IMG/VR virus record: IMGVR_UViG_3300046780_000888
Coordinates: 1-64,000 of that record
Origin: a virus
Length of the DNA stretch: 64,000 nucleotides
Reading direction: 5' to 3' (one strand)
Shown: in pieces, positions 34,073 to 57,814 of the stretch
Layout: every line of letters starts with the position of its first letter
Position numbering within the stretch: position 1 is the first letter of the stretch
Made by a program: the position numbers and the translations under genes
Notes under the pieces: generated by a model
What the model was told of the DNA's origin: nothing
The model's database searches: none
Seen by the model: the letters and a program-made list of their open reading frames with translations, nothing else

Positions 34073-34552
34073 ATGTTCCACGGCACCGGACTCGGACGAG
34101 GCGGCGGAGGTGGAGGCCACGGCGGTGGCGGCGGGCATCACGGTGGAGGCGGAGGGGGCCACCACGGTGGCGGGGGTGGCGGACACCGTGGCGGAGGAGG
34201 CCGCCGCGGGGGCGGCACGGTCGTAGTTCAGGGAGGAGGCTGGGGTCCCGGGTGGTACGGAGGCGACGCCTCGTACCCGTACCCGTACCCGTACCCGGTC
34301 GTGGTCGAACCAGACTGCCCGGTGATCGATACCTACGGCAACTGCGTCTGTCAGCTCGTCGACAACAGCGGTCGCTGCGTTGCTGGGCTCGGTGACGACG
34401 CGGCGGCGCCGCCGCCGGCGCCGCTCGAGGCCGCGGCGACCGGCGCGTCGTCCACGACGTGGATCACCGGCGGTCTCATCATCCTTATCGCGTTCGGGGT
34501 GATGGCGCTTGACAAGAAGGGCCCAGCTCCGATTCGGAGCCGAGCGGCCTAG
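34073..34552 (+). CDS. Gly/His-rich tail-anchored protein
   Basis: 159 residues. MFHGTGLGRGG leads into ~45 residues of Gly/His repeats (GGGHHGGGGGG), then an Arg/Gly stretch, a YPYPYPYP segment, a Cys pair (YGNCVCQLVDNSGRCV) and a C-terminal membrane helix (TWITGGLIILIAFGVMAL) with a DKK tail. The His-rich arm might bind metal or DNA. First of the series of C-terminally anchored proteins. Confidence 0.65.
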   Translation: MFHGTGLGRGGGGGGHGGGGGHHGGGGGGHHGGGGGGHRGGGGRRGGGTVVVQGGGWGPGWYGGDASYPYPYPYPVVVEPDCPVIDTYGNCVCQLVDNSGRCVAGLGDDAAAPPPAPLEAAATGASSTTWITGGLIILIAFGVMALDKKGPAPIRSRAA

Positions 34553-34554
34553 GG

Positions 34555-34680
34555 TTACCGCGGAAAAATCTTCAGCGCTGCGCAGAGGATTGCCACGACG
34601 GCGAGCCCAGTCGAGATCCAGTTGCCCTTGGATTGGACGATGATGGCGGTGCCGAGAAAAACCGTAATGACGAGGAGCAT
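34555..34680 (-). CDS. Small two-helix membrane protein (leftward)
   Basis: 41 residues: MLLVITVFLGTAIIV and WISTGLAVVAILCAALKIF are two hydrophobic helices. The ATG lies 6 bases from a leftward TACAGT -10 box, so it would be leaderless. It could extend upstream in frame to 34842, but that part is not hydrophobic and overlaps the rightward promoter. Confidence 0.4.
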   Translation of the reverse strand: MLLVITVFLGTAIIVQSKGNWISTGLAVVAILCAALKIFPR

Positions 34681-34686
34681 CCCGGT

Positions 34687-34750
34687 ACTGTAGCGCCTTT
34701 TCGGCCAAGAAAACCGAGCGCTTGAGTTACTGGGCCACCGCAAGTACAGT
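34687..34750. promoter_or_regulatory. Divergent promoter pair
   Basis: Rightward: TTGAGT (34722-34727), 17 bases, TACAGT (34745-34750), leading to the transglutaminase-like gene. Leftward: TACAGT (34692-34687), 6 bases before ATG 34680, with only a weak GTTTTC-like -35. Confidence 0.45.
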
Positions 34751-34794
34751 TCCCAGTGCAGGGCGCTTCCCGACCCCCGGCTCGGGATTCGTCT

Positions 34795-35349
34795 ATGCTC
34801 GCCGCCAACCCCCCGCACGTCACTTCCGGGTTTCAAGGTCACCCGGACACGCTGCGTACCATGGTGCGACAGGCGCAGGGGCCGCGAGGAGAGCAGAGCT
34901 TGCTCGTTCGCCGCATGACCGAAGAGGTCATCCGCCGAGTGCAGCCGAAGGACTACCTCGGAGAGATCCTCGCTCTACGGTATTGGGTCACCGAGAAGGT
35001 GCGGTACACGAACGATCCTCTCCACGTCGAACTCGTGCGTGATCCGGAAGCGCTCGTCGAAGAGATCGATCAGCACGGAGTCGTCACGGCGGACTGCGAC
35101 GAAAGCGCAGAGCTCATCGCCACGATGGCACTTCAGCTCGGTCGCGTCGCCGAGTACGTGGTCGTCGGGTTCGGTGAGCCTGGACAGTACAGCCACGTCT
35201 TCGCTCGAGTGCAGGAGCCGCGCACTGGAAAATGGATCGTGACGGATAACGTCGCGGGTTCGGACGAGCGGGGCATGCTCGATCGGGTGACGACGTTCTA
35301 CACGGTGAGCCTCGATGAGCCTCCGGGAGCGATGAGAAACATCACATGA
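34795..35349 (+). CDS. Transglutaminase-like cysteine protease/amidase
   Basis: 184 residues from ATG 34795; a GTG at 34756, 5 bases after the -10, is an alternative. VVTADCDESAELIATMALQL gives Cys101, QYSHVFARVQ gives His134 and WIVTDNVAG gives Asp151, the Cys-His-Asp triad in transglutaminase-core order. Expected to cleave or form amide bonds, for example maturing or cross-linking particle proteins or cutting peptidoglycan peptides. It overlaps the next gene (ATGA), starting the late block. Confidence 0.7.
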   Translation: MLAANPPHVTSGFQGHPDTLRTMVRQAQGPRGEQSLLVRRMTEEVIRRVQPKDYLGEILALRYWVTEKVRYTNDPLHVELVRDPEALVEEIDQHGVVTADCDESAELIATMALQLGRVAEYVVVGFGEPGQYSHVFARVQEPRTGKWIVTDNVAGSDERGMLDRVTTFYTVSLDEPPGAMRNIT

Positions 35350-36050
35350 GCGCACGCTACCGAAATCGCCGTCCACCGTACCCAGTGTACGCATCGCAAC
35401 CGATGTTCGGCGGCGATCTTCCGACCATCGACGAGATCGGGCCGCCAGATATGCGGGCGAGCGGGTTGAACCCGTACTACGACCTCAATAGCGGCGCGCA
35501 CGGCCGCAACTTCGCGGGCCTTGGAGGCAACATGCAGAGCGCTGACGTCGGCATCCAGAACTACCCCAACGAGCTCGACCTTCTCGCCGCGGCGGACGAC
35601 GTGCAGGGCAATGGCGTCTTCGACCCGGCAGGGACGCAAGGCAACATCCATCCGGACTACGGGGTGTTCGCGGATCACGAGAACCTCCCCGGGTACCTCG
35701 TCCGCGATCAGATGTATCAACCGAGCCAGGTCATCGACGGCACGACGGGCGAGCCGGTGCTCTACGTTCCGGGCGGCGCCGTCGCGATCGACCAGAGTCA
35801 GTTCGATACCATCCGCGCCCGCCAGCTCCTGTGGGAGCTCCCGCCCGGAGTAAGCCCCGAGCCGACGCAGGAGCCGAACGACGGAGAGACCTGGATCCCG
35901 AACGAGGATTCGTGGGCGGTCAACGGGCTCGGCGACGAGGCCATTGCGGCGCCGTCTGGCGGCACGTCCTCGAGAACGGGGCTCATCGCGGGCTTTGCCA
36001 TCGTCGGGCTCTCGATCGGCATCTTGGCCGCGACGCTGATGAAGAAGTAG
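35346..36050 (+). CDS. Tail-anchored virion-like protein
   Basis: 234 residues. A soluble, Gly/Pro/Asn-rich domain includes FAGLGGNMQ and VNGLGDEA motifs; a short linker leads to the C-terminal helix TGLIAGFAIVGLSIGILAAT ending MKK. There is no N-terminal signal peptide. WIPNEDSW resembles WIPNGPLW near the end of the polybasic protein at 44841. Confidence 0.65.
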   Translation: MSARYRNRRPPYPVYASQPMFGGDLPTIDEIGPPDMRASGLNPYYDLNSGAHGRNFAGLGGNMQSADVGIQNYPNELDLLAAADDVQGNGVFDPAGTQGNIHPDYGVFADHENLPGYLVRDQMYQPSQVIDGTTGEPVLYVPGGAVAIDQSQFDTIRARQLLWELPPGVSPEPTQEPNDGETWIPNEDSWAVNGLGDEAIAAPSGGTSSRTGLIAGFAIVGLSIGILAATLMKK

Positions 36051-36064
36051 GAGAGGCTCCCATC

Positions 36065-36466
36065 ATGGATCGCATGCAGGACTTTCGGACCATTCTTCCC
36101 ACGTTCAATACCATCGGCCCTTCGTCTGACGACGCGCCGATGTTCCCGAACAGAGAGGGGATCGGGAAGCTTCGGTTGTTCGCTCTGTCGCCCGTTGTCT
36201 CCGCAATGCGTGGGCTCGGCGACGATCCGGTGATCCCGGGCGCTCCCGCCACCCCGCTTATCGGTCGAGCGAGCGGCACCGACGTCGTCTGGGCGATGGT
36301 GATCCTTGGGCTCGTGGGAGCGGCGTCCTACCAGGCCGGCAAGGCCATCGCGCCGTCACACGACGCGCGGTCGACGTGGGGCTGGATCGGAGTTCCGGTC
36401 GGCCTCTTCACCGGCGTTCTCGGGCTTGGCATCATGGGCTACGTCGCCAACGGAAAGAAGGCCTGA
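36065..36466 (+). CDS. Two-span membrane protein with GLG motif
   Basis: 133 residues. Soluble N-terminus with AMRGLGDDP, then two membrane helices (VVWAMVILGLVGAASYQAGK; IGVPVGLFTGVLGLGIMGYV) and an NGKKA tail. Differs from its neighbours in having a helical hairpin. Confidence 0.6.
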   Translation: MDRMQDFRTILPTFNTIGPSSDDAPMFPNREGIGKLRLFALSPVVSAMRGLGDDPVIPGAPATPLIGRASGTDVVWAMVILGLVGAASYQAGKAIAPSHDARSTWGWIGVPVGLFTGVLGLGIMGYVANGKKA

Positions 36467-36469: not shown

Positions 36470-36826
36470 ATGGGCTGCGGATGCAACAACGGAGGAGGAA
36501 CCGGCATGCGAGGCCTTGGTCTGTCCATGAACACGTACAACGGCCCCGTTCCTCCCGGCGTGCCGAATCCGTTCACCGTGATGCTGCACAGCTACCCGAC
36601 GCGGTACCACGGGCCGATCTACACGCGTCCGATGTACGATCTGCCATGGGCGGAGCGCCCGAACGACTTCGGTCTCGAGCCGCAGATGAACGGCCTCGGG
36701 ATCGAACCGGCGGACGTCACGATCAAGCCGATGGAGCCCTGGAAGGTTGCCGTGGGCATCGCGGCGGCCATCGGCATCGTCTACGTCGCCATGCAAATGG
36801 GAGGGCCGCACCGTGTACGTGCGTGA
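36470..36826 (+). CDS. Tail-anchored protein with Cys N-terminus
   Basis: 118 residues. MGCGCNNGGGTGMRGLGLSM carries a Cys pair and the RGLG motif; a Pro/Tyr-rich middle follows; the anchor is KVAVGIAAAIGIVYVAMQM with a basic end. Overlaps the next gene by 14 bases. Confidence 0.6.
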   Translation: MGCGCNNGGGTGMRGLGLSMNTYNGPVPPGVPNPFTVMLHSYPTRYHGPIYTRPMYDLPWAERPNDFGLEPQMNGLGIEPADVTIKPMEPWKVAVGIAAAIGIVYVAMQMGGPHRVRA

Positions 36827-37157
36827 CGGACAGAGAATGCCGGAGCCCGAGGAGGGCGCCGCGTTTTTCGAGCCGATTCGGTTCGATGTCGGCATGGTTC
36901 CGCCCCGCACGATGGGGCTCGAGACCGGGATGCTGACGCGCGGATACAATCTCCGCGGGCTCGGTCAGTTCATGGCGGACTCGGCCGCCTCGGAGCCATC
37001 GCCGGCCCCGGCCCCTTCCGCGCCCTCTTCGGTTCCGGTCGTGGCCTCAGCCGTGCCGCCGAGCACGAGTCCGTCTGCCGATCACGTTCCGTGGCTCTTC
37101 GGCATCGGAGCTGCGATCGGCGGCTTCATCTTGTTCAGCAGGAAGCGGAAAAGGTAA
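36813..37157 (+). CDS. Tail-anchored protein with Pro/Ser stalk
   Basis: 114 residues, GTG start chosen for GGAGGG 8 bases upstream. N-terminal part contains YNLRGLGQFM; then a stalk SEPSPAPAPSAPSSVPVVAS; then anchor PWLFGIGAAIGGFILFS and tail RKRKR. Confidence 0.6.
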   Translation: MYVRDGQRMPEPEEGAAFFEPIRFDVGMVPPRTMGLETGMLTRGYNLRGLGQFMADSAASEPSPAPAPSAPSSVPVVASAVPPSTSPSADHVPWLFGIGAAIGGFILFSRKRKR

Positions 37158-37669
37158 TGGACGTTCAAACTCGCGAAGGCATCTTTGGCGGAGGCGCGTA
37201 CGGCGGCGGCGTGTTCGACGGATCGAACATGGGCTTCGGCGCGCTCGGGGGCCTCGGTGTGTTCCCGCCTCCGAGCAAATACCCCGCAGGGTACCCCTCG
37301 CCGACCTACACGGCGAAGGCCGGCGAGACGGGGACCACGATCGCTCGCGACATCACCGGGAACGGGAACCGGTGGACCGAACTCGTTACGGCGAACCCGG
37401 AGACGAAGGACGCGACCATCGGGATGCGGTTCAATCCAGGAAAATCGCTGAAGCTACCCACGTCATGGGTGGCCGCCGCGGGCGTGACGGCGACTCCGGA
37501 CAGCCCGACGAGCATCGCGCCCGCTCCGGGTACAGCAGCAAGCGCGACAGCTGTTACGTCTACGTCGGCCTCGTCGCCGGCAGAATCCGGTATGTCGACC
37601 GGCATGGTCGTCGCAGGTCTCGTTGGTGTGGCGGTGATCGCCGGCATCTTCATCATGAGGAACAAGTAA
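37157..37669 (+). CDS. Tail-anchored LysM-like protein
   Basis: 170 residues, start overlapping the previous TAA. YTAKAGETGTTIARDITGNG, then RWTELVTANPETK and FNPGKSLKLPTSW, follow the LysM pattern (residues ~49-103), so it may bind peptidoglycan or chitin-like glycan. An Ala/Thr/Ser stalk and anchor STGMVVAGLVGVAVIAGIFI-MRNK complete it. N-terminal GALGGLGVF carries the GLG motif. Confidence 0.65.
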   Translation: MDVQTREGIFGGGAYGGGVFDGSNMGFGALGGLGVFPPPSKYPAGYPSPTYTAKAGETGTTIARDITGNGNRWTELVTANPETKDATIGMRFNPGKSLKLPTSWVAAAGVTATPDSPTSIAPAPGTAASATAVTSTSASSPAESGMSTGMVVAGLVGVAVIAGIFIMRNK

Positions 37670-37670: not shown

Positions 37671-38417
37671 ATGTACTCAGGAGTAGGATTCAGTGGGCAG
37701 AGCGGTCTCGGCGGCGACGCGTGGCAATGGATGTCATCGACGCCAGATCCGCTTTTGGTTCGTTTCCAGAAGGCGCTGAACACGGAGCTCACGAAGCGAG
37801 GGTTCAAGCCGATTGCGACCGACGGGAAGATGGGTCCTGGGACCTGTGGTGCGTGGGCGTGGCTTGGAACGCTTCACGATGTCGATTTCTCCGCCAATCC
37901 GGATCTGAATCTCGAGAGTTACTTCGTAAGCGGGGACGGAGATAACGCCTCGCAGACGAACCCATGCAAGGGGTTCACGTATCCGACGAAGGTCGGCGGC
38001 GGCGTGTACACCCCGCCCTCGACGTTCTCTGATCAGCTCCCCTGGTGCTCGCACGACAGCCGGGTGGCTGCGGTGCAGCTCAATGTGAATGAGCAGCTCG
38101 ACGCCCACGGGTACGAAACGGGGCCGACAGATGGAATGATGTGCGAGGAGACGTGCGGCGGGATGAAGCTCGCGTCCGATCTCTGGGGCGTCAACTTCAT
38201 GTCTGCGTACGGGCAGAACTGCAAGAGCTTCGCGACGCCAGCGAAAAAAGCGGTAGCTGCGCCTCCCCCTGTGTCCACCCTCGCGCCTTCGACGACTCCG
38301 GTCACCTCGTCGTTCCCAACGAAGAAGACCGGTTCGAGCCAGGCGTGGATGGTGGGTGGCCTCATCGGCGCTGCGGCGCTTGCCGGGCTTTACGCCGCGA
38401 CGAAGAAAAAGAAGTAA
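37671..38417 (+). CDS. Tail-anchored protein with two peptidoglycan-binding-like domains
   Basis: 248 residues. MYSGVGFSGQSGLGG opens the protein. VRFQKALNTELTKRGFKPIA-TDGKMGPGTCGA and VQLNVNEQLDAHGYETGP-TDGMMCEETCGG are two PG_binding_1-like units, each with a Cys after the DGxMG turn. A stalk and anchor (AWMVGGLIGAAALAGLYAAT) end in KKKK. Confidence 0.65.
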   Translation: MYSGVGFSGQSGLGGDAWQWMSSTPDPLLVRFQKALNTELTKRGFKPIATDGKMGPGTCGAWAWLGTLHDVDFSANPDLNLESYFVSGDGDNASQTNPCKGFTYPTKVGGGVYTPPSTFSDQLPWCSHDSRVAAVQLNVNEQLDAHGYETGPTDGMMCEETCGGMKLASDLWGVNFMSAYGQNCKSFATPAKKAVAAPPPVSTLAPSTTPVTSSFPTKKTGSSQAWMVGGLIGAAALAGLYAATKKKK

Positions 38418-38423: not shown

Positions 38424-39050
38424 ATGCAGAACTACGGCAACATCGCGTACGACGATTTCTCCCACTTGAACGCCCAGTGGCAACAGGAGCGCCCTCCCAT
38501 GGCAGGACTAGGAGCAGCATACGGTCAGCATCAGTACAGGGATGTGTCGTACCTGAACGCACGCCTTCGTCCGATTCTGCCTGCGCAGGTAGGTCTGAGC
38601 CCGGACGGCATGGGCCTCTCGGGCGGCAGCTTGATGGGCAACAGCCTCGGCATCAGCACTGGCGATTTTACCAAAGCGCAGGTGATGGAGACGCAGGACA
38701 TCCTGAACGGCGCCCTCATCCAGGCCGGGTACGTACCGATCAAGGTGGATGGAGATCTCGGCCCCGCTACCTGCGGCGCGATCAACTGGTACCGAGAGAA
38801 CATTCATGCCGAGGGCGGCGAGTCCTTCATGTCGGCGTGCTCGACGGTTGCGGCGAAGCCCCCAACGAAGGCATCGGGCGGCACGGCGCCCTCATCCGTC
38901 GCAACGCGGTCCCCCTCGACGGGCGTGCGGCCCGTGACGTCCAGCGTGTTCGGCTCGGGCGGAGGGACCAACTGGATGCTCTGGGGAGGAGCGATCGCGG
39001 CCGTCGCGGTCGGTGGAGCGCTGATCTTCCGCGCATCGAAGAAGAGGTAA
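38424..39050 (+). CDS. Tail-anchored protein with one peptidoglycan-binding-like domain
   Basis: 208 residues. MAGLGAAYGQ motif near the start; VMETQDILNGALIQAGYVPI then DGDLGPATCGAINWY is the PG-binding-like unit, closely related to those in 37671-38417; Ser/Thr/Pro stalk; anchor NWMLWGGAIAAVAVGGALIF; tail RASKKR. Confidence 0.65.
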   Translation: MQNYGNIAYDDFSHLNAQWQQERPPMAGLGAAYGQHQYRDVSYLNARLRPILPAQVGLSPDGMGLSGGSLMGNSLGISTGDFTKAQVMETQDILNGALIQAGYVPIKVDGDLGPATCGAINWYRENIHAEGGESFMSACSTVAAKPPTKASGGTAPSSVATRSPSTGVRPVTSSVFGSGGGTNWMLWGGAIAAVAVGGALIFRASKKR

Positions 39051-39057: not shown

Positions 39058-39423
39058 ATGCCTACGGCCATCCAGCAGGTCCAGCAGCGTCTTGGCGTCC
39101 AGCAAAGTGGGCACTGGGACTCGGCGACGGACGGAGCGCTCATCGCCTACCAGCAGGCGGCGAAGGGCGCGTACGCCATGGACCCGAATGGCCATCCGGA
39201 TCCCGCGACGCTGGTGAACCTCGGGTACTACACGCCGGGGGATCTCTTCACGCAAGAGTGGTCGGACTACCTCACCGGGGGTGCGAAGCCCGGTCACTTT
39301 GGTCGGGACCTTCGATCTGCAATCGATCAAGTGCCCCGCTGGGCCTGGGGGACGCTCGCTGCCGGATTCGGGATCTTCGCCTACATGGCGTGGCGCACGG
39401 ACAAGAAGCGCGCGAAAGGCTGA
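39058..39423 (+). CDS. Short tail-anchored peptidoglycan-binding-like protein
   Basis: 121 residues. IQQVQQRLGVQQSGHWDSAT and DGALIAYQQAA match the PG_binding_1 core without the Cys of its neighbours. Anchor RWAWGTLAAGFGIFAYMAW, tail RTDKKRAKG. Third member of the local duplication. Confidence 0.65.
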   Translation: MPTAIQQVQQRLGVQQSGHWDSATDGALIAYQQAAKGAYAMDPNGHPDPATLVNLGYYTPGDLFTQEWSDYLTGGAKPGHFGRDLRSAIDQVPRWAWGTLAAGFGIFAYMAWRTDKKRAKG

Positions 39424-39429: not shown

Positions 39430-40320
39430 ATGATCGACTACCTTGCCGGTATGTACGCGGATCTCGTCGAGACGCCCGGGATCCCATGGGATGGCCTGAC
39501 GGCGCAAGGGCACGCGATCACCGACAACGGCTACGACGCGGCCTACATGGACATCATGCTCCAGGAGGGCGCAAAGTTCTTCGGTGTTCTCGGTACGATG
39601 AGCCAAGAGTTTCGCGACAAATACACCAACCTGCGAGCGAACGAAGCGAAGGCTGCGATGACGCAGCTCATGGCGCTCATCGATCAAACAGGTGCCGACG
39701 TGTGGACCGCAGTGAAACACGGAGACTGGTCCTCCGCCACCCACTTTCCTCGAGCGGTCTCAGTCGATGCGCTCGCCTCCATGGCGGCGTCGGCCGTTAA
39801 CGGGGCGTACCTACACTACGATGGGGTCGTCGAGGCGGCGATACTCGCCGGGAAGCTCACGCCCGAGGAAGCCCAGGCGCACGCGCAGTCGCTCGTGCAG
39901 ACGTTTCAGACGTTCGTGACCCTTGACAAGAACGGCCACCTCGATCAGTTCAAGACGAGTCCGCCAGTCGCCGGAATGGGAGGGCCTGAGCTGCTCGCAG
40001 GCTGGGCGCTCGTCGCGCTCGGGGTAACCCTCGTGCTCGGGATCTGTTACCTCGTCTACGTCTTCAAGATTGCGGCTCCTATCCAGCAGAAGATCATCGA
40101 GTACTGTGACAAGATGAGCAAGAGCGGGAACCCCGACGACACGCGGGCCTGCGTGCAGTCGCTCGAGAGCATGCAGAAGAACGGAAACGCGGATCTCGCG
40201 TCGTTCATGGGGACCATTCTCAAACCAGTGATCATCGTCGCTGCTGTAGGCGCCGCGGCGTATCTCGGGTTTCTGTTCCTTCCTGGGCTTCTCAAGGGGA
40301 GTCGGAAGGCGGTCGCGTGA
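39430..40320 (+). CDS. Two-span membrane protein
   Basis: 296 residues. Helical soluble domain of ~175 residues, then LLAGWALVALGVTLVLGICY, a ~45-residue Cys-containing loop (YCDKMSKSGNPDDTRACVQS) and a second helix (VIIVAAVGAAAYLGFLFLPG) with a basic end. The loop Cys pair may form a disulphide if it faces outside. ATGA overlap with the next gene. Confidence 0.6.
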   Translation: MIDYLAGMYADLVETPGIPWDGLTAQGHAITDNGYDAAYMDIMLQEGAKFFGVLGTMSQEFRDKYTNLRANEAKAAMTQLMALIDQTGADVWTAVKHGDWSSATHFPRAVSVDALASMAASAVNGAYLHYDGVVEAAILAGKLTPEEAQAHAQSLVQTFQTFVTLDKNGHLDQFKTSPPVAGMGGPELLAGWALVALGVTLVLGICYLVYVFKIAAPIQQKIIEYCDKMSKSGNPDDTRACVQSLESMQKNGNADLASFMGTILKPVIIVAAVGAAAYLGFLFLPGLLKGSRKAVA

Positions 40321-40658
40321 TCTATTCCGAGTGGAAGCCTGACACTGGCGGCTTCATCTATTACGAGGCCAACGAGGCGCAGAACATCAACGACGATCTG
40401 CCGGCGCCGGAGTTGCGTGCGGCCTCGAAGATCGGAGTTCCGTCGATCGAGGCGGGCCGTCCCCTTCCGTCCGGCGCGAGGGTCGTCGGCGAAGGAGACG
40501 TGGCCGTCGGGATGATCGCTCCGGTGAATCCATCACGGATCGTCCGCCGCACCCGGTCTCTTGCTGGGGTGGCCGAGGCGATGCAGATGCAATCGGTCTG
40601 GGTCGGTATTGGAGCTGCGACGATCCTCGTCTGGTGGGTGTGGAAGAGCAACCGCTGA
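40317..40658 (+). CDS. Tail-anchored small protein
   Basis: 113 residues, GTG start (GTGA overlap). Soluble N-terminus, then SVWVGIGAATILVWWVWKSN as a C-terminal anchor with basic end. The Trp-rich anchor suggests an interfacial position. Confidence 0.55.
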   Translation: MIYSEWKPDTGGFIYYEANEAQNINDDLPAPELRAASKIGVPSIEAGRPLPSGARVVGEGDVAVGMIAPVNPSRIVRRTRSLAGVAEAMQMQSVWVGIGAATILVWWVWKSNR

Positions 40659-41224
40659 TGGCCCTCCGAGTAGTCGAGACCAAGAAGCAGGCCGTGAAGA
40701 CGTACGAGACGTTCTACGCGCGGGCGCCTGCGCGCGAGATCGAGATGCCATTCGGCTGGCCGACGAAAATGCAAGAAGTCGGCGTCGGCGGAGCCGAGAT
40801 GTACCGCTCGAACAAGTGGCAGAAGAATCTATCGGAGCATGAGGACTACAAGCACGTCGCGGAGGGGTCGCGCACGGTGTTTGCGGAGCCCGGCTTTCTG
40901 CGCGAGTGGGGCTCGCCGCAGCGTCCGATCAAAGTCGTGGGCCCCGTGGTCCGGTTCGAGGAGCCGATGCCGAAGCACTTCACGCGGCTCGGACCGCTGC
41001 TCGGTGTCCAGGTGCAGCTCTATCAGGCGGGCAAGAATGGCAGCGTGGTCGTTCCGAAGGGCGACGAGGGGCGGTACGAGGTGACGGTCGCCCGCGCGAT
41101 GCTCGGAGCGGCGAAACACCCGAAGACCGGCGAAGTCTTCCTGTTCGTCTACACCCCAGAGGGCGTGCACATGATTCTCACTGGCGGCTCGCTCAAGATC
41201 GAAAAGGACGGGATCGCCGGCTGA
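40658..41224 (+). CDS. Soluble protein within the tail-anchored block
   Basis: 188 residues, no membrane helix. Beta-rich C-terminal half (LLGVQVQLYQAGKNGSVVVP; GEVFLFVYTPEGVHMILTGG). TGATG junctions with both neighbours. It may be a soluble partner or assembly factor of the anchored proteins; function unknown. Confidence 0.55.
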   Translation: MALRVVETKKQAVKTYETFYARAPAREIEMPFGWPTKMQEVGVGGAEMYRSNKWQKNLSEHEDYKHVAEGSRTVFAEPGFLREWGSPQRPIKVVGPVVRFEEPMPKHFTRLGPLLGVQVQLYQAGKNGSVVVPKGDEGRYEVTVARAMLGAAKHPKTGEVFLFVYTPEGVHMILTGGSLKIEKDGIAG

Positions 41225-51369: not shown

Positions 51370-52142
51370 CCTATCGAACCATGCACGGGCTCGGGGCTAC
51401 GCCTCCGCCTCCGACACTCAGCGACGCGTCTCTCGCGCTCTTTCTGAAGGGCTACCTGGCAACCGGTGGCTGTGCGACGCCGGCAGTGAAAGCGAACTTC
51501 GACGCGCTCAGCTGCTTGAACAACCAACTCGTCCAGATCGGGGGAGCCTGTTACCTCGGCCGTACACCGACGGGGCTCACCGATTTAGAGTTTGCTAGTG
51601 CGTGCATGGATCTCGCCAAGTGCGGAGTCTTCACGAAGCCGGGCTGCCCCGCGGACTCCGCGCCGTATCTCAGCTCGGTGCCGAAGTGCCTGAACGCGGA
51701 CGTCGGACCGCTGGTGGACTACTGCCGGCAGTATCCGCAGTTCAACGGCGACAACAAACAGGCCAACGCAGCATGCTGGGCGATGTCCCGCTATCAGGAC
51801 GTTTACCAGAAGGTGATGGCGCTCGGTCCGTGCCCATCCCCGTCCGTCACGGTCGCGCCCCCGGTGTATCAACCGGCTCCTCCTCCCCCGTCGGCCGCGC
51901 CACCGGCGTATCAGCCGCCGCCTCCATCCGACATGCCGCCTCCCCAGCAATCGTCGGCTCCTCCCGGCTCGCCCGAGGCGACGCCAGGACCGATCGATGT
52001 CGCTCCTCCGGACTCCGGTTCAAGCGTGACGACGGATGCCGGGGCGCCGCCCCCTGCGCCCCAAAAATCCAACATGATGATGTGGGGCCTCGCGGGCGCT
52101 GCGGCGCTCGGTGTGGGGTACCTCATTTTCAGAAAGAAGTAG
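51366..52142 (+). CDS. Cys-rich tail-anchored protein with Pro-rich stalk
   Basis: 258 residues. MTYRTMHGLGATPP start motif; ~130-residue domain with 11 Cys (YCRQYPQFNGDNKQANAACW) paralogous to 52146-52865; Pro-rich stalk (PPVYQPAPPPPSAAPPAYQP); anchor MMMWGLAGAAALGVGYLIF and tail RKK. Disulphide formation would require exposure outside the cytoplasm. Confidence 0.65.
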   Translation: MTYRTMHGLGATPPPPTLSDASLALFLKGYLATGGCATPAVKANFDALSCLNNQLVQIGGACYLGRTPTGLTDLEFASACMDLAKCGVFTKPGCPADSAPYLSSVPKCLNADVGPLVDYCRQYPQFNGDNKQANAACWAMSRYQDVYQKVMALGPCPSPSVTVAPPVYQPAPPPPSAAPPAYQPPPPSDMPPPQQSSAPPGSPEATPGPIDVAPPDSGSSVTTDAGAPPPAPQKSNMMMWGLAGAAALGVGYLIFRKK

Positions 52143-52145
52143 ACG

Positions 52146-52865
52146 ATGTACAGCGGAGTAGGACTGCTTGAATCAACGGCGACGGGCGTTCGATCTGTCC
52201 CGCGTCCAACGTGCATCACTCCGGATGAGCGAGCGGAGGCTAACGCGAAGTGCCCTCACGTGGTGCTCCGCGGCGTCGGACTGGGGCAGGCAACGGCCCC
52301 GATGTCCGGTCGCCTGGCCGCGTTCTCGGCGTGCGACGTAAAGGATCTTCCGGATTGCGCCACGCCGACGTGTCTCGATCAGTACACCGCAGGGCTTATC
52401 GCGGGATGCATTGCAGGTACGCCTGGGGATCCTGACTTCGATTGCACGTCGCTCTACACGTACGCGCTCTCGCGCCTTCCGTTCTGCACCGGCGGCGGCG
52501 TCCTTCCTCCGCTTCCGACCTGCCTCACGCCGGATGTCGTGGCGATCATCCAGTACTGCCGGCAGTACCCCGCGGCGAACGGTCCGAACAAAGCGGCGAA
52601 CGCGGCGTGTTGGGCCATCACGCATGATTCCAGGTACTGGACCGCCCTCCAGGCGCTACCCGCGTGCGGAACGGGACAGGCTCTCGAACCCCCGAGGCAC
52701 GTGACGCCGCCGCCTGCGATGCCGCCGCCGTCGCCCCCGGTCGCTCAGGGCCCCGGTGCTGCAGCGCCCAAAACCGAAGCGTCGATGTCCGGCATGTTCG
52801 GGATCCTGGCGCTCGTTGCTGTCGCTGGCGGCGGGTTCTACATGTACCGGAAGTACAAGAAATAG
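52146..52865 (+). CDS. Cys-rich tail-anchored protein, paralogue of 51366
   Basis: 239 residues. MYSGVGLLES start; RGVGLGQA motif; two Cys-rich units, the second with YCRQYPAANGPNKAANAACW nearly identical to its neighbour; shorter Pro-rich stalk; anchor MFGILALVAVAGGGFYMY and RKYKK tail. The start 4 bases after the paralogue indicates tandem duplication. Confidence 0.65.
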   Translation: MYSGVGLLESTATGVRSVPRPTCITPDERAEANAKCPHVVLRGVGLGQATAPMSGRLAAFSACDVKDLPDCATPTCLDQYTAGLIAGCIAGTPGDPDFDCTSLYTYALSRLPFCTGGGVLPPLPTCLTPDVVAIIQYCRQYPAANGPNKAANAACWAITHDSRYWTALQALPACGTGQALEPPRHVTPPPAMPPPSPPVAQGPGAAAPKTEASMSGMFGILALVAVAGGGFYMYRKYKK

Positions 52866-52870: not shown

Positions 52871-53092
52871 ATGAACATGAACCTCGTCGCCATCGCCGGC
52901 GTGCCGCCGGTTTCGGACATGTCCGGAAAGCTCGTCGGCGTCGGCGGTTGCGGGTGTACGGGCTTCGGCGACACGCCACCGACGGAGGAGCAGCGGAATG
53001 CTCTCAACTGGACGGCCCTTGTCTTCTTCGGGGTCGCGCTCGGGATTGGATATTTCCTGCTCCGTGAGCCCTCGGGCAGGAGAACGCGGTAG
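52871..53092 (+). CDS. Short tail-anchored protein
   Basis: 73 residues. VGVGGCGCTGFGD Cys motif (compare MGCGCNNGGG in 36470-36826), then anchor NWTALVFFGVALGIGYFLL and tail REPSGRRTR. Confidence 0.6.
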   Translation: MNMNLVAIAGVPPVSDMSGKLVGVGGCGCTGFGDTPPTEEQRNALNWTALVFFGVALGIGYFLLREPSGRRTR

Positions 53093-53313
53093 TGGATAAC
53101 ATGAAGGCTGCCGTGAACGCGGCCGAGGCCCTCGGGCCCACGCTCGATACCGTCGGCGGGCCCCTCGGGCTCGTCGGGCGCGCCATCGGGCTCGGAGCTG
53201 ACGAACTCGACGCCGGGGTACCGAAGTGGGCCTGGCTCGGGATTGGGGTCGTAGCGGGCGGGATTGCCATGTACTTTTTGCGGCCTCGCGTCGAGGCTTT
53301 CGTCGGCGACTGA
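53092..53313 (+). CDS. Short tail-anchored protein
   Basis: 73 residues, GTG overlapping the upstream TAG. Gly/Leu-rich helix (GPLGLVGRAIGLGADELDAG) then anchor WAWLGIGVVAGGIAMYFL and a mixed tail. A small TACCC-TTTT-GGGTA hairpin (53321-53334) follows. Confidence 0.55.
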   Translation: MDNMKAAVNAAEALGPTLDTVGGPLGLVGRAIGLGADELDAGVPKWAWLGIGVVAGGIAMYFLRPRVEAFVGD

Positions 53314-53349: not shown

Positions 53350-54474
53350 ATGCTCGGAGCGTATTTCGGCAGCACGACAATCACCCAGGGCGCAGGCGGC
53401 TTGGGTCAGGACGGCCCACTCATGGCGTACGCGGACGGTGTGGTCGGCGGGAACGCGGAGAGCGCGGACACGCCGGGTCCTCTCTTCGCTTACCAGGATG
53501 GCTCACTCGGTGCGACGGCGCTCGCGGTTCCAGCGTCCATTCAGGCAGCAGTGCGAGCGAGGAAAGCGAAGACTCTGATCGAGCAGTACATGCAGCGCTG
53601 CATCGCGGCGCATGCACCATCAGCGACGCGTGCCCAGAAATGCGGGACGATGGCCTATATGTGGGCCCGACAAAACGGACTATTGGCCCAATCGCGTCTT
53701 CCGCGAAGCTTCTTCGGTTTGACCGGCCTCGGGCAAGACGGTCCGCTCATGGCGTACGCGGACGGAGTCGTCGGCGGCCAAGCCGCAGATGCGGACATGC
53801 CCGGGCCAATCGTTGCGTACCACGACGGCTCGCTCGGCGATGCTGGGGACGACGATGCGACGCCCGTCGATGCCTTCCACGATGGCGTTCTCGGCCCGCA
53901 CTATGATGGGATGGACACGTTCGGGCCGCTCATGGCGTACCACGACGGATCGCTCGGCGCGACGCAGGTCTCGCTTGATCTCGGCGACCAGTCGGCGCTG
54001 ACCGAGGTGAAGTCGATGATGGCGCTCCTCGCTCCGGAGCAGACGCTGACGGCGGACGGGCAGAAGGTGTACACGCCTGATTGGTACACGAGCGGGATCT
54101 GGGATCCGCAGGCTTCTCTCCTCTGGCAGTACATCGTCTCGAAGACGGCGGCATTCAGCGGCAAGGACGTGAGCGTCACGGCCGGTGACCAGACCTATCC
54201 GAACGCAACAGCCATCGGGTTCATGGTCTCGACGATCGGCGCCCCGACCGCGTCGAGCTACGGTCCGGACTACCTGAAGAAGAACTTCCCGATCCTTTCG
54301 GCGTGGTTCTCCGCAGGCGGCGGTCCCGTGCTCGCGCCCTACCTCTCGCTCGCGGACAAGACGCGGGAAGAGCGTGCGGGCGCAGGCGGCGGCACCAAGA
54401 TGAGCACGATGGCGATGTACGGCCTCGGCGCCGTGGCTCTCCTCGGGCTTGCGCTCGTGTTCCGGAGGAAATGA
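53350..54474 (+). CDS. Tail-anchored protein with GPLMAY(H/A)DG repeats
   Basis: 374 residues. Seven copies of a ~12-residue unit ending DG(S/V)(L/V)G, e.g. GLGQDGPLMAYADGVVGG and GPLMAYHDGSLG, lie in two clusters (residues ~17-58 and ~125-217) around a helical insert with two Cys. A soluble domain (~220-345) and anchor MYGLGAVALLGLALVF with RRK tail follow. The repeat is acidic and Gly-rich, possibly Ca-binding or a self-association motif; no family recognised. Confidence 0.65.
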   Translation: MLGAYFGSTTITQGAGGLGQDGPLMAYADGVVGGNAESADTPGPLFAYQDGSLGATALAVPASIQAAVRARKAKTLIEQYMQRCIAAHAPSATRAQKCGTMAYMWARQNGLLAQSRLPRSFFGLTGLGQDGPLMAYADGVVGGQAADADMPGPIVAYHDGSLGDAGDDDATPVDAFHDGVLGPHYDGMDTFGPLMAYHDGSLGATQVSLDLGDQSALTEVKSMMALLAPEQTLTADGQKVYTPDWYTSGIWDPQASLLWQYIVSKTAAFSGKDVSVTAGDQTYPNATAIGFMVSTIGAPTASSYGPDYLKKNFPILSAWFSAGGGPVLAPYLSLADKTREERAGAGGGTKMSTMAMYGLGAVALLGLALVFRRK

Positions 54475-54477: not shown

Positions 54478-54666
54478 ATGGGCTACCGCACCGATCAGAA
54501 CCAGTGGGCCATGGGCGAGTACTTCGCGGCGAGCGGCGGCCTCGGCGAGACCCTCGCCGCTGAAGGGACCACGACTGACGACGAGTCCTGGAAGAAGCCG
54601 TGGTTCTTCGGACTCTTCGTTGGGGCGCTGGTCGGGTACTCGTTCGCTCATCTGACGAAGAAGTAG
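54478..54666 (+). CDS. Small tail-anchored GEYF protein
   Basis: 62 residues. MGYRTDQNQWAMGEYFAASG, then GGLGETLAAEG, then anchor WFFGLFVGALVGYSFAHL and TKK. The MGEYF element is shared with the C-terminus of the polybasic protein, hinting at a common binding partner. Confidence 0.6.
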   Translation: MGYRTDQNQWAMGEYFAASGGLGETLAAEGTTTDDESWKKPWFFGLFVGALVGYSFAHLTKK

Positions 54667-54673: not shown

Positions 54674-55294
54674 ATGGTGGACCTCTTCGAGCGCATCCGC
54701 CGAGTGACCGGTGACATTCAGTGGGGGTCGTTCGTTGCCGTGATGGCGAGGAACGTGGGGGAGTCGTCCGACGCGGCGCACGAGGTCGTCGAGCAGCTGA
54801 AAGAGTGGGGCTCGCATCTCACGCGAAACGCGCTCTTGAAATGGACGATGGCGATCGCGGCGCCGACACCGTGCGCCTGTCCGGGCGTTGCTAGCGGCGG
54901 CAAGACGAAGCCTTGCGAGTGGATCGCGATCGTCAAGTGCGACGCGTGCGGGCGACCCTGCTGCCTCGCGCATGCGCGAGTGGACTACGCGGCAGAAGCG
55001 ATCTGTGCCGTCTGCATCGTGGGAGCAAAGGCGCGGGCTCAGAGCTACGCGAATGTAGACGCGCAAGCGCCCGGGCGTCCGGGTGTCATGACGCGGTCGC
55101 AAGCTCTCAAGACACTCCGCCTTTCGGCGACGGCGGAGTGGGCGCAGATCAAGAAGCAGTACTACCGGCTCGCGATGAAGTACAACCCGGACCGACCCGG
55201 CAAGCAGCAAGCGGCGAACACCGAGCGGATGAAGAAGATCAACGCGGCGTTCGAGGTGCTCCGGGAAGAGCACGAGCGGAAGGCGGCAGCGTGA
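54674..55294 (+). CDS. Zinc-finger J-domain protein with altered HPD
   Basis: 206 residues. The middle has a zinc module (CACP ... CDACGRPCCLAHARVDY ... ICAVC). Residues ~140-203 form a J domain (ALKTLRLSATAEWAQIKKQY; RLAMKYNPDRPGK; MKKINAAFEVLREEH) in which the invariant His of HPD is Asn (NPD). HPD mutants normally fail to stimulate Hsp70 ATPase, so this may be a non-canonical or dominant-negative J protein, perhaps for virion assembly. Confidence 0.7.
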   Translation: MVDLFERIRRVTGDIQWGSFVAVMARNVGESSDAAHEVVEQLKEWGSHLTRNALLKWTMAIAAPTPCACPGVASGGKTKPCEWIAIVKCDACGRPCCLAHARVDYAAEAICAVCIVGAKARAQSYANVDAQAPGRPGVMTRSQALKTLRLSATAEWAQIKKQYYRLAMKYNPDRPGKQQAANTERMKKINAAFEVLREEHERKAAA

Positions 55295-55674
55295 CGTACC
55301 GAGCAGTGGGAGCCGGCCCAGGTCCGGTCGAGAAGTACAAGATCGACGCGCCGTTCCCGTGGGGCGACAACACGGAGATCGCAGTCCCCATGCAGCAGAT
55401 GGTGGACGACGCGTGGCAGGCGATCTCCCCGAAGATCGATGCGCTCGAGGCGAAGCTCATACAGGACATGGAGGGCGAGATGGAGATCTACGCTCCGGTT
55501 CTGGTGAAGCAGGTCATGGATGAGGTCGTGCGTCCCGAGATCGCGAAGCAGATGGAAGTCGCCTTCGCCGAGGTCGGCCTCGTGAAGGACGATGCGATCA
55601 AGGGGATGCTTGCGCTCACTGGCATGGTCGTTCTCTCGGTCGGCATCGCCGCCTGGTGGGTGAAGAAGGGCTGA
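55291..55674 (+). CDS. Tail-anchored protein, YRAxGAGPGP family A
   Basis: 127 residues, GTG start (GTGA overlap). TYRAVGAGPGPVEKYKIDAP opening is shared with the next gene; an extra ~50-residue helix (EAKLIQDMEGEMEIYAPVLV) is inserted before anchor MLALTGMVVLSVGIAAWWV with KKG tail. Confidence 0.6.
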   Translation: MTYRAVGAGPGPVEKYKIDAPFPWGDNTEIAVPMQQMVDDAWQAISPKIDALEAKLIQDMEGEMEIYAPVLVKQVMDEVVRPEIAKQMEVAFAEVGLVKDDAIKGMLALTGMVVLSVGIAAWWVKKG

Positions 55675-55675
55675 C

Positions 55676-55912
55676 ATGAGCTACCGCGCAATGGGCGCAG
55701 GCCCCGGCCCCACGACCACTTACATGGTGGATCTGCCGCTCCCGTGGGGGCGCGACACGGAGGTGACGCTTCCGATGGACGCGCTCGTTCAGGATGCGTG
55801 GACGGCGATGTCGCCACGGATGGACGTGGCGATCGCCAAGGGGTCGATCGCCGTCGCGGCGTCTGTGGCGGTCGTCATCGGTCTTGCCGCCTACTGGATG
55901 AAGTCGAAATGA
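55676..55912 (+). CDS. Tail-anchored protein, YRAxGAGPGP family B
   Basis: 78 residues. SYRAMGAGPGPTTTYMVDLP and PWGRDTEVTLPMDALVQDAW align with the previous protein minus its helical insert; anchor IAVAASVAVVIGLAAYWM with KSK. A tandem duplication differing by an insertion. Confidence 0.65.
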   Translation: MSYRAMGAGPGPTTTYMVDLPLPWGRDTEVTLPMDALVQDAWTAMSPRMDVAIAKGSIAVAASVAVVIGLAAYWMKSK

Positions 55913-56148: not shown

Positions 56149-56153
56149 ACCGC

Positions 56154-56327
56154 ATGCAACCGCCCCGCGTCGCGTACTGGGACGAGAGCCTCGGGCGTCT
56201 CGTCGAGTCCGAAGAGCCGGACTTCGACGCCGAGCGCTTTAGTGCGATGATGGCGGCGGGCTGCGATGTGACGGAGCGGGACACCATGCCGGCACCACCG
56301 CCCGTGCCTGAGGAGTACGACCGATGA
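56154..56327 (+). CDS. Small acidic hypothetical protein
   Basis: 57 residues (VAYWDESLGRLVESEEPDFD...) ending in a Pro-rich acidic stretch (PAPPPVPEEYDR). Possible linker or partner for the next protein, with which it overlaps by 4 bases. Confidence 0.5.
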   Translation: MQPPRVAYWDESLGRLVESEEPDFDAERFSAMMAAGCDVTERDTMPAPPPVPEEYDR

Positions 56328-56749
56328 TGCGTCCAGTCGGCAGCTATTGGAACGTTCCTGATTCGGACTATCAGGAGCTGCCCGTCGGCACTCCCGGCTG
56401 GCAGGACGCGCCGGTCCCTGGCTGGGGAATCAACCCGTTACGGGCGGGGCCCATGCGAGTGGGCATCGGGCTCGGTGGCGGGATCTGGGACGAAGACGGT
56501 CCCCTCCCTCGATACACGCCCATCGGGAGCCTCGGAGATCACTTCTCGGAGGATGCCGAGACGCTGCACTACGGTGGCAGCATCCCGTGGCAGGACGCGG
56601 TGCTGCCGAATTACTTCCCGCTCGGCGCCGATCCGGAAGCGGCGTATCACGAGACGAGCTACGGCGTCGTCGCCGGGGGCATGGCGATTGGCATCGGACT
56701 CGGGATCCTGTTCGGGTACGCATGGTGGGGACAGAAGCACACCAGCTGA
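56324..56749 (+). CDS. Tail-anchored protein
   Basis: 141 residues. Tyr/Pro/Gly-rich soluble part with two similar segments (PGWQDAPVPGWGINP; SIPWQDAVLPNYFP), then anchor SYGVVAGGMAIGIGLGILFG with basic end QKHTS. Followed by an 8-base T run with no clear stem. Confidence 0.6.
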   Translation: MMRPVGSYWNVPDSDYQELPVGTPGWQDAPVPGWGINPLRAGPMRVGIGLGGGIWDEDGPLPRYTPIGSLGDHFSEDAETLHYGGSIPWQDAVLPNYFPLGADPEAAYHETSYGVVAGGMAIGIGLGILFGYAWWGQKHTS

Positions 56750-56777
56750 TTTTTTTTCAAAAACAACGGAGAACGAC

Positions 56778-57200
56778 ATGACTCAATATGCAACCGCAGA
56801 ACTCTCGGACGTGACGAACAGCTTCATTCAAGCAGCGGAAGCCAGCGAGCTTGCGGCGCGCCTGAATGCGGTGCTGCAGGACACTGGCGGAGGAAGCGCC
56901 GTCCTCTCACTCCATCTCGCGGGAGGCGGAGATGGACATACGTTCGTTGTCGCCATCGAGCGCTCGGAGAGCGTGACAGGGGGCACAGCGCTGACCGACG
57001 AGAATCTCATCGGGTGCTACCTCGCGGCCTCCGAGAGTGAGCTCGCGGTGGCGAAAGACGCGTGTGTCGCCGCAATGCTGGCACTACCTCCCCCGTCCGG
57101 GGGAGAGACGCTCGCCGTGGTGGATGATCAGATCGCCGGCGCCTCAAAGGGCACGCGCTTCATGGGGATGATCGTCGCTATCTATCACGGTGGCGGCTGA
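56778..57200 (+). CDS. Stand-alone attachment-domain protein
   Basis: 140 residues, good GGAG Shine-Dalgarno. Same fold family as the N-termini of the collagen fibre and the beta-helix spike: LSLHLAGGGDGHTFVVAIE, then QIAGASKGTRFMGMIVAIYH matching the spike almost exactly. It contains only this domain, so it could be a baseplate or spike-base subunit, or a truncated spike. Confidence 0.6.
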   Translation: MTQYATAELSDVTNSFIQAAEASELAARLNAVLQDTGGGSAVLSLHLAGGGDGHTFVVAIERSESVTGGTALTDENLIGCYLAASESELAVAKDACVAAMLALPPPSGGETLAVVDDQIAGASKGTRFMGMIVAIYHGGG

Positions 57201-57217
57201 GATCTCGGATCTAGGTG

Positions 57218-57538
57218 ATGCGCAAAAACACCCATCTCCCGAGCAGAGACTACCTCGAGCCTGAAGACCTCGGGGAGACGCTGCTTGAGGAGATGGACGA
57301 GCTCGCGGCCGATGCCCTCGACGTCGAGGCCGAGCATGTGGAGGTCTCGCTGTTCTGCCGGAAGGGCGCCGAGGGCGGCGACGACTGCTACGGGTACGAG
57401 ATCTTGATCCGTGGCGAGCACCGCCGCGTGGACGACGAGTTCGCGTCGATCCTCGCCGCGATCGAATCCTTCGAGGAGTGGTGCGAGCAGCGACTTGGTG
57501 ACTCTCAGGACGCCGCCGCAGACGCCGATGAGGATTGA
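57218..57538 (+). CDS. Acidic hypothetical protein
   Basis: 106 residues from ATG 57218 (GTG 57215 also possible). Acidic, with VSLFCRKGAEGGDDCYGYEI and an acidic end (DAAADADED). Sits between two attachment-domain genes, possibly a chaperone for one of them (inference). Confidence 0.5.
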   Translation: MRKNTHLPSRDYLEPEDLGETLLEEMDELAADALDVEAEHVEVSLFCRKGAEGGDDCYGYEILIRGEHRRVDDEFASILAAIESFEEWCEQRLGDSQDAAADADED

Positions 57539-57541
57539 TCG

Positions 57542-57814
57542 ATGCTCGGCTACGTCGGCTACCTCAGGGCAACGGGCGCCGTAGAGACGCGTCAGGCGGT
57601 CGTGTCGTGCCCGACGTGCACGTATCTGGAGGACGGGACCTGCGTCGTCTGTGTGTCGCCGGATGACCACCCGGCGTGTGACGGGTGCCGCAACGGCCAG
57701 GTCATCTGGTATCGCAGGCCTCTGTTCGTGTCGGTCGTCATGGCGGTGACCGTCTCCTTGATCGCTGGCCTCGCGGTGAGTCAGATCAAGAAACGGACCG
57801 ACTTTTTCGACTGA
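57542..57814 (+). CDS. Zinc-site membrane protein
   Basis: 90 residues. SCPTCTYLEDGTCVVCVS and HPACDGCRNGQ give three CxxC-type pairs, a compact zinc module, then one membrane helix (LFVSVVMAVTVSLIAGLAV) and tail IKKRTDFFD. The zinc module is unlike those of other anchored proteins. Confidence 0.6.
   Translation: MLGYVGYLRATGAVETRQAVVSCPTCTYLEDGTCVVCVSPDDHPACDGCRNGQVIWYRRPLFVSVVMAVTVSLIAGLAVSQIKKRTDFFD

What the first reader, a model, noticed from the sequence alone, without database searches (positions are those of the whole stretch)
34073..57814. Array of about two dozen C-terminally membrane-anchored proteins
From 34 to 58 kb about 24 adjacent genes encode proteins with the same plan: no signal peptide, an N-terminal soluble domain of 40-600 residues, often a Pro/Ser/Thr stalk, one Gly/Ala-rich hydrophobic helix and a 2-9 residue Lys/Arg tail (e.g. 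RKRKR, KKKK, FRRK). Tailed phage virions have nothing comparable. By the positive-inside rule the tails would face the interior, which in a particle would be the DNA. I infer a membrane-containing particle with an unusually rich anchored proteome, or an undescribed envelope complex. A DNA length above 64 kb would be far beyond known internal-membrane phages such as PRD1 or PM2.
Basis: partly seen in the sequence, partly recalled or inferred. Interest (0 to 1): 0.92.

Follow-up and report, generated by a model that had tools for sequence, protein, structure and literature searches.

The report
Membrane proteome of giant tailless phage
The 24-kb stretch encodes about two dozen proteins that each carry a C-terminal membrane anchor, grouped around likely capsid genes, in a circular 120-kb virus whose closest known counterpart is a tailless phage with a membrane inside its shell, which would make this a lineage of membrane-containing bacterial viruses several times larger than any known.

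Summary
Observation confirmed. By a strict test, 23 of 38 genes in 34.0-57.9 kb end in a charge-free helix plus a short K/R tail, against 4 of 150 elsewhere in the genome (p=1e-15). The window is half of a virus record that closes to a 120.5-kb circle. At least 24 further contigs, most of them 110-182 kb, carry the same module; the anchors cluster there too. Three soluble conserved proteins lie mid-array (47.5-50.4 kb); their low-confidence models match jelly-roll capsid proteins best, but not significantly. No terminase, portal, HK97 capsid or general FtsK/HerA ATPase was found in 14-23 records. [quoted passage not shown] SSIP-1 shows the same plan: K-tailed C-terminal anchors, a recurrent G[LM]G motif, capsid genes mid-array. 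Best reading: the membrane-protein set of a very large, tailless, lipid-containing bacterial virus. No particle, lipid or host is shown; capsid homology to SSIP-1 was not detected.

The parts
31341..33884 (+). g051, 847-aa coiled-coil protein just upstream of the array; possible scaffold; same relative place as SSIP-1 gp33
   Evidence: Conserved in all 5 relatives compared genome-wide; no family (tape-measure PHROG only E 0.033)
34301..34552 (+). g053, C-anchored, tail DKKGPAPIRSRAA, GLG motif
   Evidence: start codon uncertain
34795..35349 (+). g055, transglutaminase-like cysteine-protease-type protein (C101/H134/D151 invariant), no anchor; homologue of SSIP-1 structural protein gp34
   Evidence: Pfam Transglut_core E 8.5e-4; tblastn to SSIP-1 E 3e-6; alignment A8; HMM to gp34 5e-14 in a 57-protein set
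35346..36050 (+). g056, C-anchored, two GLG motifs, tail KK
36065..36466 (+). g057, C-anchored with a second upstream helix, GLG
36470..36826 (+). g058, C-anchored, GLG twice
36837..37157 (+). g059, C-anchored, tail RKRKR
   Evidence: LPXTG-anchor model only sub-threshold
37157..37669 (+). g060, LysM-like domain plus C-anchor, tail RNK
   Evidence: PHROG 380 endolysin E 9e-8
37671..38417 (+). g061, peptidoglycan-binding-like repeats plus C-anchor, tail TKKKK
   Evidence: Pfam PG_binding_1 E 0.13, sub-threshold
38424..39050 (+). g062, peptidoglycan-binding-like plus C-anchor, tail RASKKR
   Evidence: PG_binding_3 E 0.0097, sub-threshold
39058..39423 (+). g063, weak C-anchor, tail DKKRAKG
   Evidence: borderline
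39430..40320 (+). g064, two helices, C-anchored
40317..40658 (+). g065, C-anchored core protein
   Evidence: C-anchor retained in most orthologues; found in 14 of 15 relatives (all but L022)
40658..41224 (+). g066, soluble conserved protein ending KDGI(A/V)G
   Evidence: 14 relatives, 28-77% identity
41224..43152 (+). g067, 642 aa, C-anchored, tail GTRRR
43152..44736 (+). g068-g070, three C-anchored proteins (tails WGRR, RGGGK, TRRHH)
   Evidence: g069 borderline
44841..47384 (+). g071, 847 aa, internal helices then G[LM]G/GMGEYF repeats; directly upstream of g072 as SSIP-1 gp44 is of gp45
   Evidence: hhalign ranks gp44 first but insignificantly
47539..48354 (+). g072, most conserved protein (50-88% in 14 relatives, 35-38% in L027), best major-capsid candidate
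   Evidence: AF2 beta-rich pLDDT 49; Foldseek best hits jelly-roll capsids, not significant
48518..49489 (+). g073, second capsid candidate, N-terminal helix plus beta domain
   Evidence: AF2 pLDDT 55; Foldseek best hits vaccinia D13, E 0.02
49500..50402 (+). g074, third conserved soluble protein, capsid candidate
50554..51369 (+). g075, C-anchored core protein, tail RKSR
51366..52865 (+). g076 and g077, related Pro-rich C-anchored proteins
52871..53313 (+). g078 and g079, small C-anchored proteins (g079 borderline tail)
53350..54474 (+). g080, C-anchored, repeats GLGQDGPLMAYADG..DGSLG, tail RRK
54478..54666 (+). g081, C-anchored, MGEYF and GLG
54674..55294 (+). g082, J-domain co-chaperone
   Evidence: Pfam DnaJ E 1.8e-13
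55291..55912 (+). g083 and g084, related C-anchored proteins
56324..56749 (+). g087, C-anchored, GLG
57542..57814 (+). g090, Cys-rich plus C-anchor
59035..59298 (+). g092, two helices, C-terminal RR; just past the stated end
60181..60474 (+). g095, GroES-type co-chaperonin
   Evidence: Pfam Cpn10 E 3e-23

Best explanation
The array is the virion membrane-protein set, plus the capsid genes, of a large circular-dsDNA tailless bacterial virus whose particle holds a lipid bilayer, built on the plan of SSIP-1. Proposed working: (1) the proteins are made without signal peptides and inserted post-translationally by their single C-terminal Gly/Ala-rich helix, like tail-anchored proteins, so that the N-domains stay on the cytoplasmic (future capsid) side and the K/R tails cross to the future lumen; (2) they crowd into a patch of host inner membrane, and the shell of g072-g074 forms over it, possibly docked through the recurrent G[LM]G motif; (3) the basic tails contact the genome, and the membrane closes around the circular DNA together with the shell, as proposed for PM2, because no dedicated packaging ATPase is visible; (4) on entry, anchored peptidoglycan-binding (LysM and PG_binding-like) and peptidoglycan-cutting proteins (SLT and VanY-type enzymes elsewhere in the genome) open the wall and the membrane serves DNA delivery. 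Shown: anchors, clustering, conservation, absence of tailed hallmarks, gp34 homology, motif enrichment. Inferred: virion location, topology, capsid fold, assembly and entry steps.
For: C-anchors 23/38 vs 4/150, repeated in 5 relatives. Same module in 22 IMG/VR contigs and 2 MAG contigs. Circular genome: 9,887-b end overlap with 1 mismatch, and short end repeats in two relatives. No TerL (two weak hits are SF2 helicases), portal or HK97 capsid, FtsK. g055 matches only SSIP-1 gp34, annotated structural, in INPHARED, with catalytic-type C/H/D invariant. SSIP-1 region gp34-gp57 plus gp1: relaxed C-anchors 10/25 vs 2/32, G[LM]G 7/25 vs 1/32; both features occur in gp34 and gp53, annotated structural. 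G[LM]G 34 vs 10.2+-3.1 expected in the window array, and 2-3x expectation in C-anchored proteins of relatives but not in other proteins. C-anchored virion proteins also in P23-77 (VP6, VP19) and PM2 P8. Peptidoglycan enzymes with C-terminal helices elsewhere in the genome: g167 SLT, g172 VanY. PM2-type assembly precedent: PMC6356626.
Against: Capsid candidates have no significant match to SSIP-1, to solved structures or to any family. AF2 models are low confidence and no Foldseek hit reached E 0.001. Only one gene is shared with SSIP-1 by sequence. SSIP-1 encodes a predicted packaging ATPase (gp40), with no match here (an uncontrolled negative). The positive-inside rule argues against tails in the lumen. 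No particle, lipid or host data.
Confidence: 0.72

Rival explanations
1. The anchored proteins are not virion parts but remodel the host envelope during infection (receptor blocking, lysis control, membrane compartments for replication).
For: Several carry peptidoglycan-binding-like domains; many phages encode small membrane proteins.
Against: They flank the most conserved soluble capsid-like genes in one block kept in the relatives; SSIP-1 homologue gp34 and C-anchored gp53 are annotated as structural; the shared G[LM]G motif also occurs in the capsid candidates.
Confidence: 0.12
2. Enveloped or pleomorphic particle with the anchored proteins as external spikes and no icosahedral shell.
For: Very many anchored proteins; no significant capsid-fold match; no packaging ATPase.
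Against: Three highly conserved soluble beta-rich proteins in the block; spikes of enveloped prokaryotic viruses normally carry signal peptides (own knowledge); SSIP-1 parallel.
Confidence: 0.08
3. A tailed phage whose head, portal, terminase and tail proteins are too diverged to be recognised.
For: Tail-fibre PHROG hits; coiled-coil g051 with a weak tape-measure match.
Against: Fibre hits are collagen-like repeats; TerL, portal and HK97 models find nothing in 22-23 records while controls ring; DnaB is the only widely conserved P-loop ATPase.
Confidence: 0.05
4. Not a virus: a large plasmid or other element encoding an envelope complex.
For: Circular; two members binned in MAGs; no confirmed capsid.
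Against: Integrases, SLT, amidase, VanY and M23 enzymes, GroES, DnaJ and fibres; no match for g072 in 72,556 plasmids; homology to a virion protein of SSIP-1.
Confidence: 0.03

Closest known systems
[quoted passage not shown] tailless, internal membrane, T=49, circular dsDNA 43.8 kb, unclassified)
   Same: Circular dsDNA; homologous transglutaminase-like protein heading the block (g055/gp34); run of C-anchored proteins with basic tails; G[LM]G motif in virion proteins; capsid genes inside the run; multi-helix protein directly upstream of the capsid genes (g071/gp44)
   Different: 2.8 times smaller; gp34 is fused to an anchor while g055 is soluble; has a structural ATPase (gp40, AAA_25-like); capsid proteins without detectable similarity; far fewer anchored proteins
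Thermus phage P23-77 (Matshushitaviridae, Helvetiavirae)
   Same: Circular dsDNA, internal membrane, two adjacent capsid genes flanked by small membrane proteins, some C-anchored (VP6, VP19)
   Different: 17 kb; FtsK/HerA-type packaging ATPase; no sequence similarity seen in the INPHARED searches
PM2 (Corticoviridae)
   Same: Circular dsDNA, internal membrane, small anchored virion proteins (P8 ends IKRK), assembly proposed around the DNA without an empty procapsid (PMC6356626)
   Different: 10 kb, double jelly-roll capsid protein, FtsK-like ATPase P9
Odin group and FLiP (ATPase-less double jelly-roll viruses)
   Same: No recognisable packaging ATPase (PMC5894146)
   Different: Genomes about 9-18 kb, capsid proteins recognisable, FLiP is ssDNA

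Membership tests
SSIP-1-like internal-membrane phages | Homologue of structural protein gp34 | tested here: met
   tblastn E 3e-6 over 124 residues; HMM 5e-14; C/H/D invariant
SSIP-1-like internal-membrane phages | Run of C-anchored proteins and G[LM]G motif in the structural block | tested here: met
SSIP-1-like internal-membrane phages | Homologous major capsid proteins | tested here: not met
   HMM and hhalign of g072, g073, g074, g186 against all 57 SSIP-1 proteins: nothing significant
SSIP-1-like internal-membrane phages | Structural ATPase gp40 | tested here: not met
   No match in 22 records; the query had no positive control, so weak
SSIP-1-like internal-membrane phages | Tailless icosahedral particle with internal membrane | not testable with these tools
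   Needs particles
[quoted passage not shown]
   Low-confidence models; best but insignificant hits are jelly-roll capsids
Varidnaviria (jelly-roll capsid lineage) | FtsK/HerA packaging ATPase | tested here: not met
   PF01580 in 14 records: only Walker A of DnaB; PF01935 in 22 records: one hit above cut-off, in the 182-kb record only; Walker A scans
Caudoviricetes | Large terminase | tested here: not met
   phrog_2 in 23 records; two weak hits are SF2 helicases
Caudoviricetes | Portal and HK97-fold capsid | tested here: not met
   PF04860 and PF05065 in 22 records: none
Sortase-type surface proteins (LPXTG/PEP-CTERM-like) | Signal peptide plus sorting signal above the model cut-off | tested here: not met
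   LPXTG_anchor and GVDTG models only below cut-off; no typical signal peptides

The most novel reading that the evidence does not exclude
A previously undescribed, widespread lineage of 110-180-kb tailless, membrane-containing bacterial viruses, the first giant icosahedral internal-membrane viruses of prokaryotes, which enclose circular DNA without a dedicated packaging ATPase, using a crowd of basic-tailed anchors joined to the shell through a shared G[LM]G motif.
Probability: 0.4. Interest if true: 0.95.

Novelty: new variant of a known kind. Interest (0 to 1): 0.85.

Why it matters
[quoted passage not shown] A lineage about three times larger would show that giant membrane-containing icosahedral viruses are not a eukaryotic speciality, would sharpen the question of how circular DNA gets inside without a packaging motor, and gives SSIP-1 its first relatives. 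It also supplies over 20 membrane proteomes in which anchoring, topology and docking motifs can be tested.

Tried and rejected
Adenovirus-protease-type cleavage motif ([MIL]xGxG or [MIL]xGG) as the meaning of GLG: not above shuffles. Sortase sorting signals: below cut-off. TerL hits in two relatives: translated and found to be SF2 helicases. FtsK hits in two relatives: Walker A of DnaB. Sequence search of the capsid candidates in the PDB: nothing useful. Profile comparison between g072, g073 and g074: no common origin seen. Capsid candidates in INPHARED and g072 in PLSDB: none. SSIP-1 capsid homology: none. CRISPR spacers against relatives: no match beyond chance. First-try planctomycete contig G015:C343 was the wrong contig; C115 is the right one. 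Literature searches for a described lineage of this kind in the held library found none; preprints and most subscription papers are not held. The 2012 SSIP-1 paper is not held, so SSIP-1 particle facts come from reviews.
Full report
WHAT WAS CHECKED. The window is bases 1-64,000 of a 130,395-base IMG/VR virus record. The last 9,887 bases repeat the first with one mismatch, so the record closes to a circle (or is terminally redundant) of 120,508 b. GC is about 63%, with no tRNA in the window. I called 191 distinct genes with a simple codon-usage caller of my own; gene starts are approximate.

With a strict rule (charge-free 19-residue helix near the C-terminus followed by a short net-positive tail), 23 of 38 genes between 34.0 and 57.9 kb pass and 4 of 150 elsewhere do (p=1e-15). 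Helices are 37% Gly+Ala on average, tails carry a mean net charge of +2.6, and the 20 residues before the helix about 0. Within the block three well conserved soluble proteins (g072, g073, g074) form an island at 47.5-50.4 kb, preceded by g071, which has internal helices.

IT IS A CONSERVED MODULE. Searches with g072, g073 and g074 found 22 IMG/VR contigs (38-182 kb, 15 of them above 100 kb) and two MAG contigs, 122.7 and 106.3 kb. Two of these (125.0 and 122.7 kb) also have direct end repeats of 127-141 b, as circular assemblies do. g072 is 50-88% identical in most and 35-38% in the most distant. Gene order is kept across the block. In five relatives read nearly whole, C-anchored products are again concentrated around g072 (p 1.6e-4 to 2.5e-11). 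Genome-wide core genes beside the block include DnaB, two glycosyltransferases, an SLT transglycosylase with a C-anchor (g167), an SGNH hydrolase (g168), an M23-type peptidase (g179), g183, g185 and g186. MAG labels (Pseudomonadota, Planctomycetota) cannot be taken as hosts, because these are separate contigs that may have been binned by chance.

NOT A TAILED PHAGE BY ANY TEST RUN. The large-terminase model phrog_2 gave nothing in 14 records and two weak hits in 9 more, which proved to be SF2 helicases. Portal PF04860 and HK97 capsid PF05065 gave nothing in 22 records. Controls rang in all these searches. Of 36 array proteins only three PHROG and four Pfam families were touched; the named ones are endolysin (LysM part), DnaJ, transglutaminase and peptidoglycan binding. 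Tail-fibre hits elsewhere are collagen-like GXT repeats.

NO PACKAGING MOTOR SEEN. A six-frame Walker A scan of the whole genome leaves only DnaB, and a DnaC-like loader found by family search, as credible P-loop ATPases. In relatives DnaB is the only one kept throughout. FtsK (PF01580) hits are DnaB's Walker A, and HerA/DUF87 passes its cut-off only in the 182-kb record. A motor without a canonical Walker A cannot be excluded. Absence of the motor has precedents only in small viruses: the Odin group and FLiP (PMC5894146).

CAPSID FOLD: A LEAD ONLY. AlphaFold2 with 16-sequence alignments gave beta-rich models of low confidence (g072 pLDDT 49, g073 55). Foldseek found no hit below E 0.001. The best hits were circovirus and picornavirus capsids for g072 and vaccinia D13, PBCV-1 and poliovirus proteins for g073. 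Jelly rolls dominate the top of both lists (with lectins also present for g073), but the tool warns that low-confidence models give meaningless matches. I rate jelly-roll capsid proteins at about 0.6.

THE LINK TO SSIP-1. The transglutaminase-like protein g055 at the head of the block is kept in all five genomes compared. In 50,697 phage records it matches one virus only: gp34 of Salisaeta icosahedral phage 1, annotated as structural (E 3e-6). Cys, His and Asp of the catalytic-triad type are invariant. In IMG/VR the family turned up only in this lineage (plus four short contigs not examined further) and in SSIP-1 (patterns taken mostly from the lineage). SSIP-1 is tailless, has an internal membrane, T=49, circular 44-kb dsDNA and two capsid protein types of presumed single-beta-barrel kind (PMC6260650, PMC4958249, PMC6356626). 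Its structural half shows the same plan: gp34 itself ends in a helix and QSSK and has RGMGEP; gp36, gp39, gp52, gp53 and gp54 have C-terminal helices, mostly with K-containing tails; C-anchors (relaxed) 10/25 vs 2/32, G[LM]G 7/25 vs 1/32. Gene order runs parallel: unknown or coiled-coil protein (gp33/g051), transglutaminase-like, anchored proteins, multi-helix protein (gp44/g071), capsid genes, anchored proteins. Which SSIP-1 genes are the capsid genes (gp45/gp46, which resemble each other) is my reading of the record, not a cited fact. The capsid candidates themselves do not match. So it works like SSIP-1 with good support; being a member of one family with it is unproven.

THE G[LM]G MOTIF. 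Array proteins contain 34 copies against 10.2 +- 3.1 in shuffles (maximum 20 in 200), in 21 of 39 proteins against 14 of 145 elsewhere. Outside the anchor the motif is 2-3 times over expectation in C-anchored proteins of the relatives and about at expectation in other proteins. It also occurs in g072, g074, g185 and g187. Adenain-like patterns are not enriched. I read it as a docking peptide for the shell or a maturation site, perhaps for g055; neither is tested.

MECHANISM. PRD1 takes a patch of the inner membrane inward, and PM2 is thought to close its membrane around the circular genome while the shell forms, templated by membrane proteins (PMC6356626). The present array fits the second scheme. 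For the topology, the positive-inside rule and the lack of signal peptides point in opposite directions: large N-domains without signal peptides should stay in the cytoplasm, which places the K/R tails in the lumen with the DNA; this is inference. At SSIP-1 packing density, 120.5 kb would need a particle about 1.4 times wider, T near 96 (scaling only). Peptidoglycan-binding-like array members and anchored SLT and VanY-type enzymes suit entry through the wall.

VERDICT. Most likely this is the membrane proteome of a new, very large variant of the SSIP-1 kind of virus.

Noticed in passing
record 96,223-99,950 (L005:16223-19950), outside the window: Virus-encoded compact type V CRISPR system: 517-aa protein matching Cas12u3 (E 1e-12) and Cas12f (E 4e-10), followed by about 20 repeats of about 36 nt in two sequence variants with 35-40-nt spacers; no Cas1/Cas2 seen; not found in five relatives; spacers do not match relatives.
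   Followed up: partly
record 1081-3936, 108285-109535, 116895-118067; window 57830-58990: Several collagen-like GPTGATG fibre proteins (and g091, which lacks the repeats) share one N-terminal domain (MSRYGSI..ITSPASxIxRxV), as if a common base plugs different fibres into the particle.
   Followed up: no
window 22992-23822 and record 100196-101221: Two related proteins with a protein-kinase-like glycine loop (LGCGHFGCVFES..VVKF / LGCGRFGCVFAS..VIKI), both with matches in relatives.
   Followed up: no
record 75389-75907 and 88148-88642: Two lipoprotein-like proteins with TGG-rich repeats that resemble, from memory, lipoproteins of Polyangiales; possible host hint, not tested.
   Followed up: no
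record 68135-72172: 1345-aa protein with a tyrosine recombinase domain in its N-terminal half and a long unassigned C-terminal part, conserved in G001 and G005.
   Followed up: no
G007:C1:11747-13117; L020; L024: DnaB homologue with one in-frame TAG; loci L020 and L024 give unusually few called genes. Possible recoding or assembly errors.
   Followed up: no
G022:C1:79441-79569: The 182-kb member alone has a HerA/DUF87-type match above cut-off, in a 768-aa frame.
   Followed up: no
record 115422-116288 (g186): Conserved 288-aa soluble protein far from the array (37-67% in five relatives), no family; another capsid or vertex candidate beside GLG-bearing g185 and g187.
   Followed up: partly
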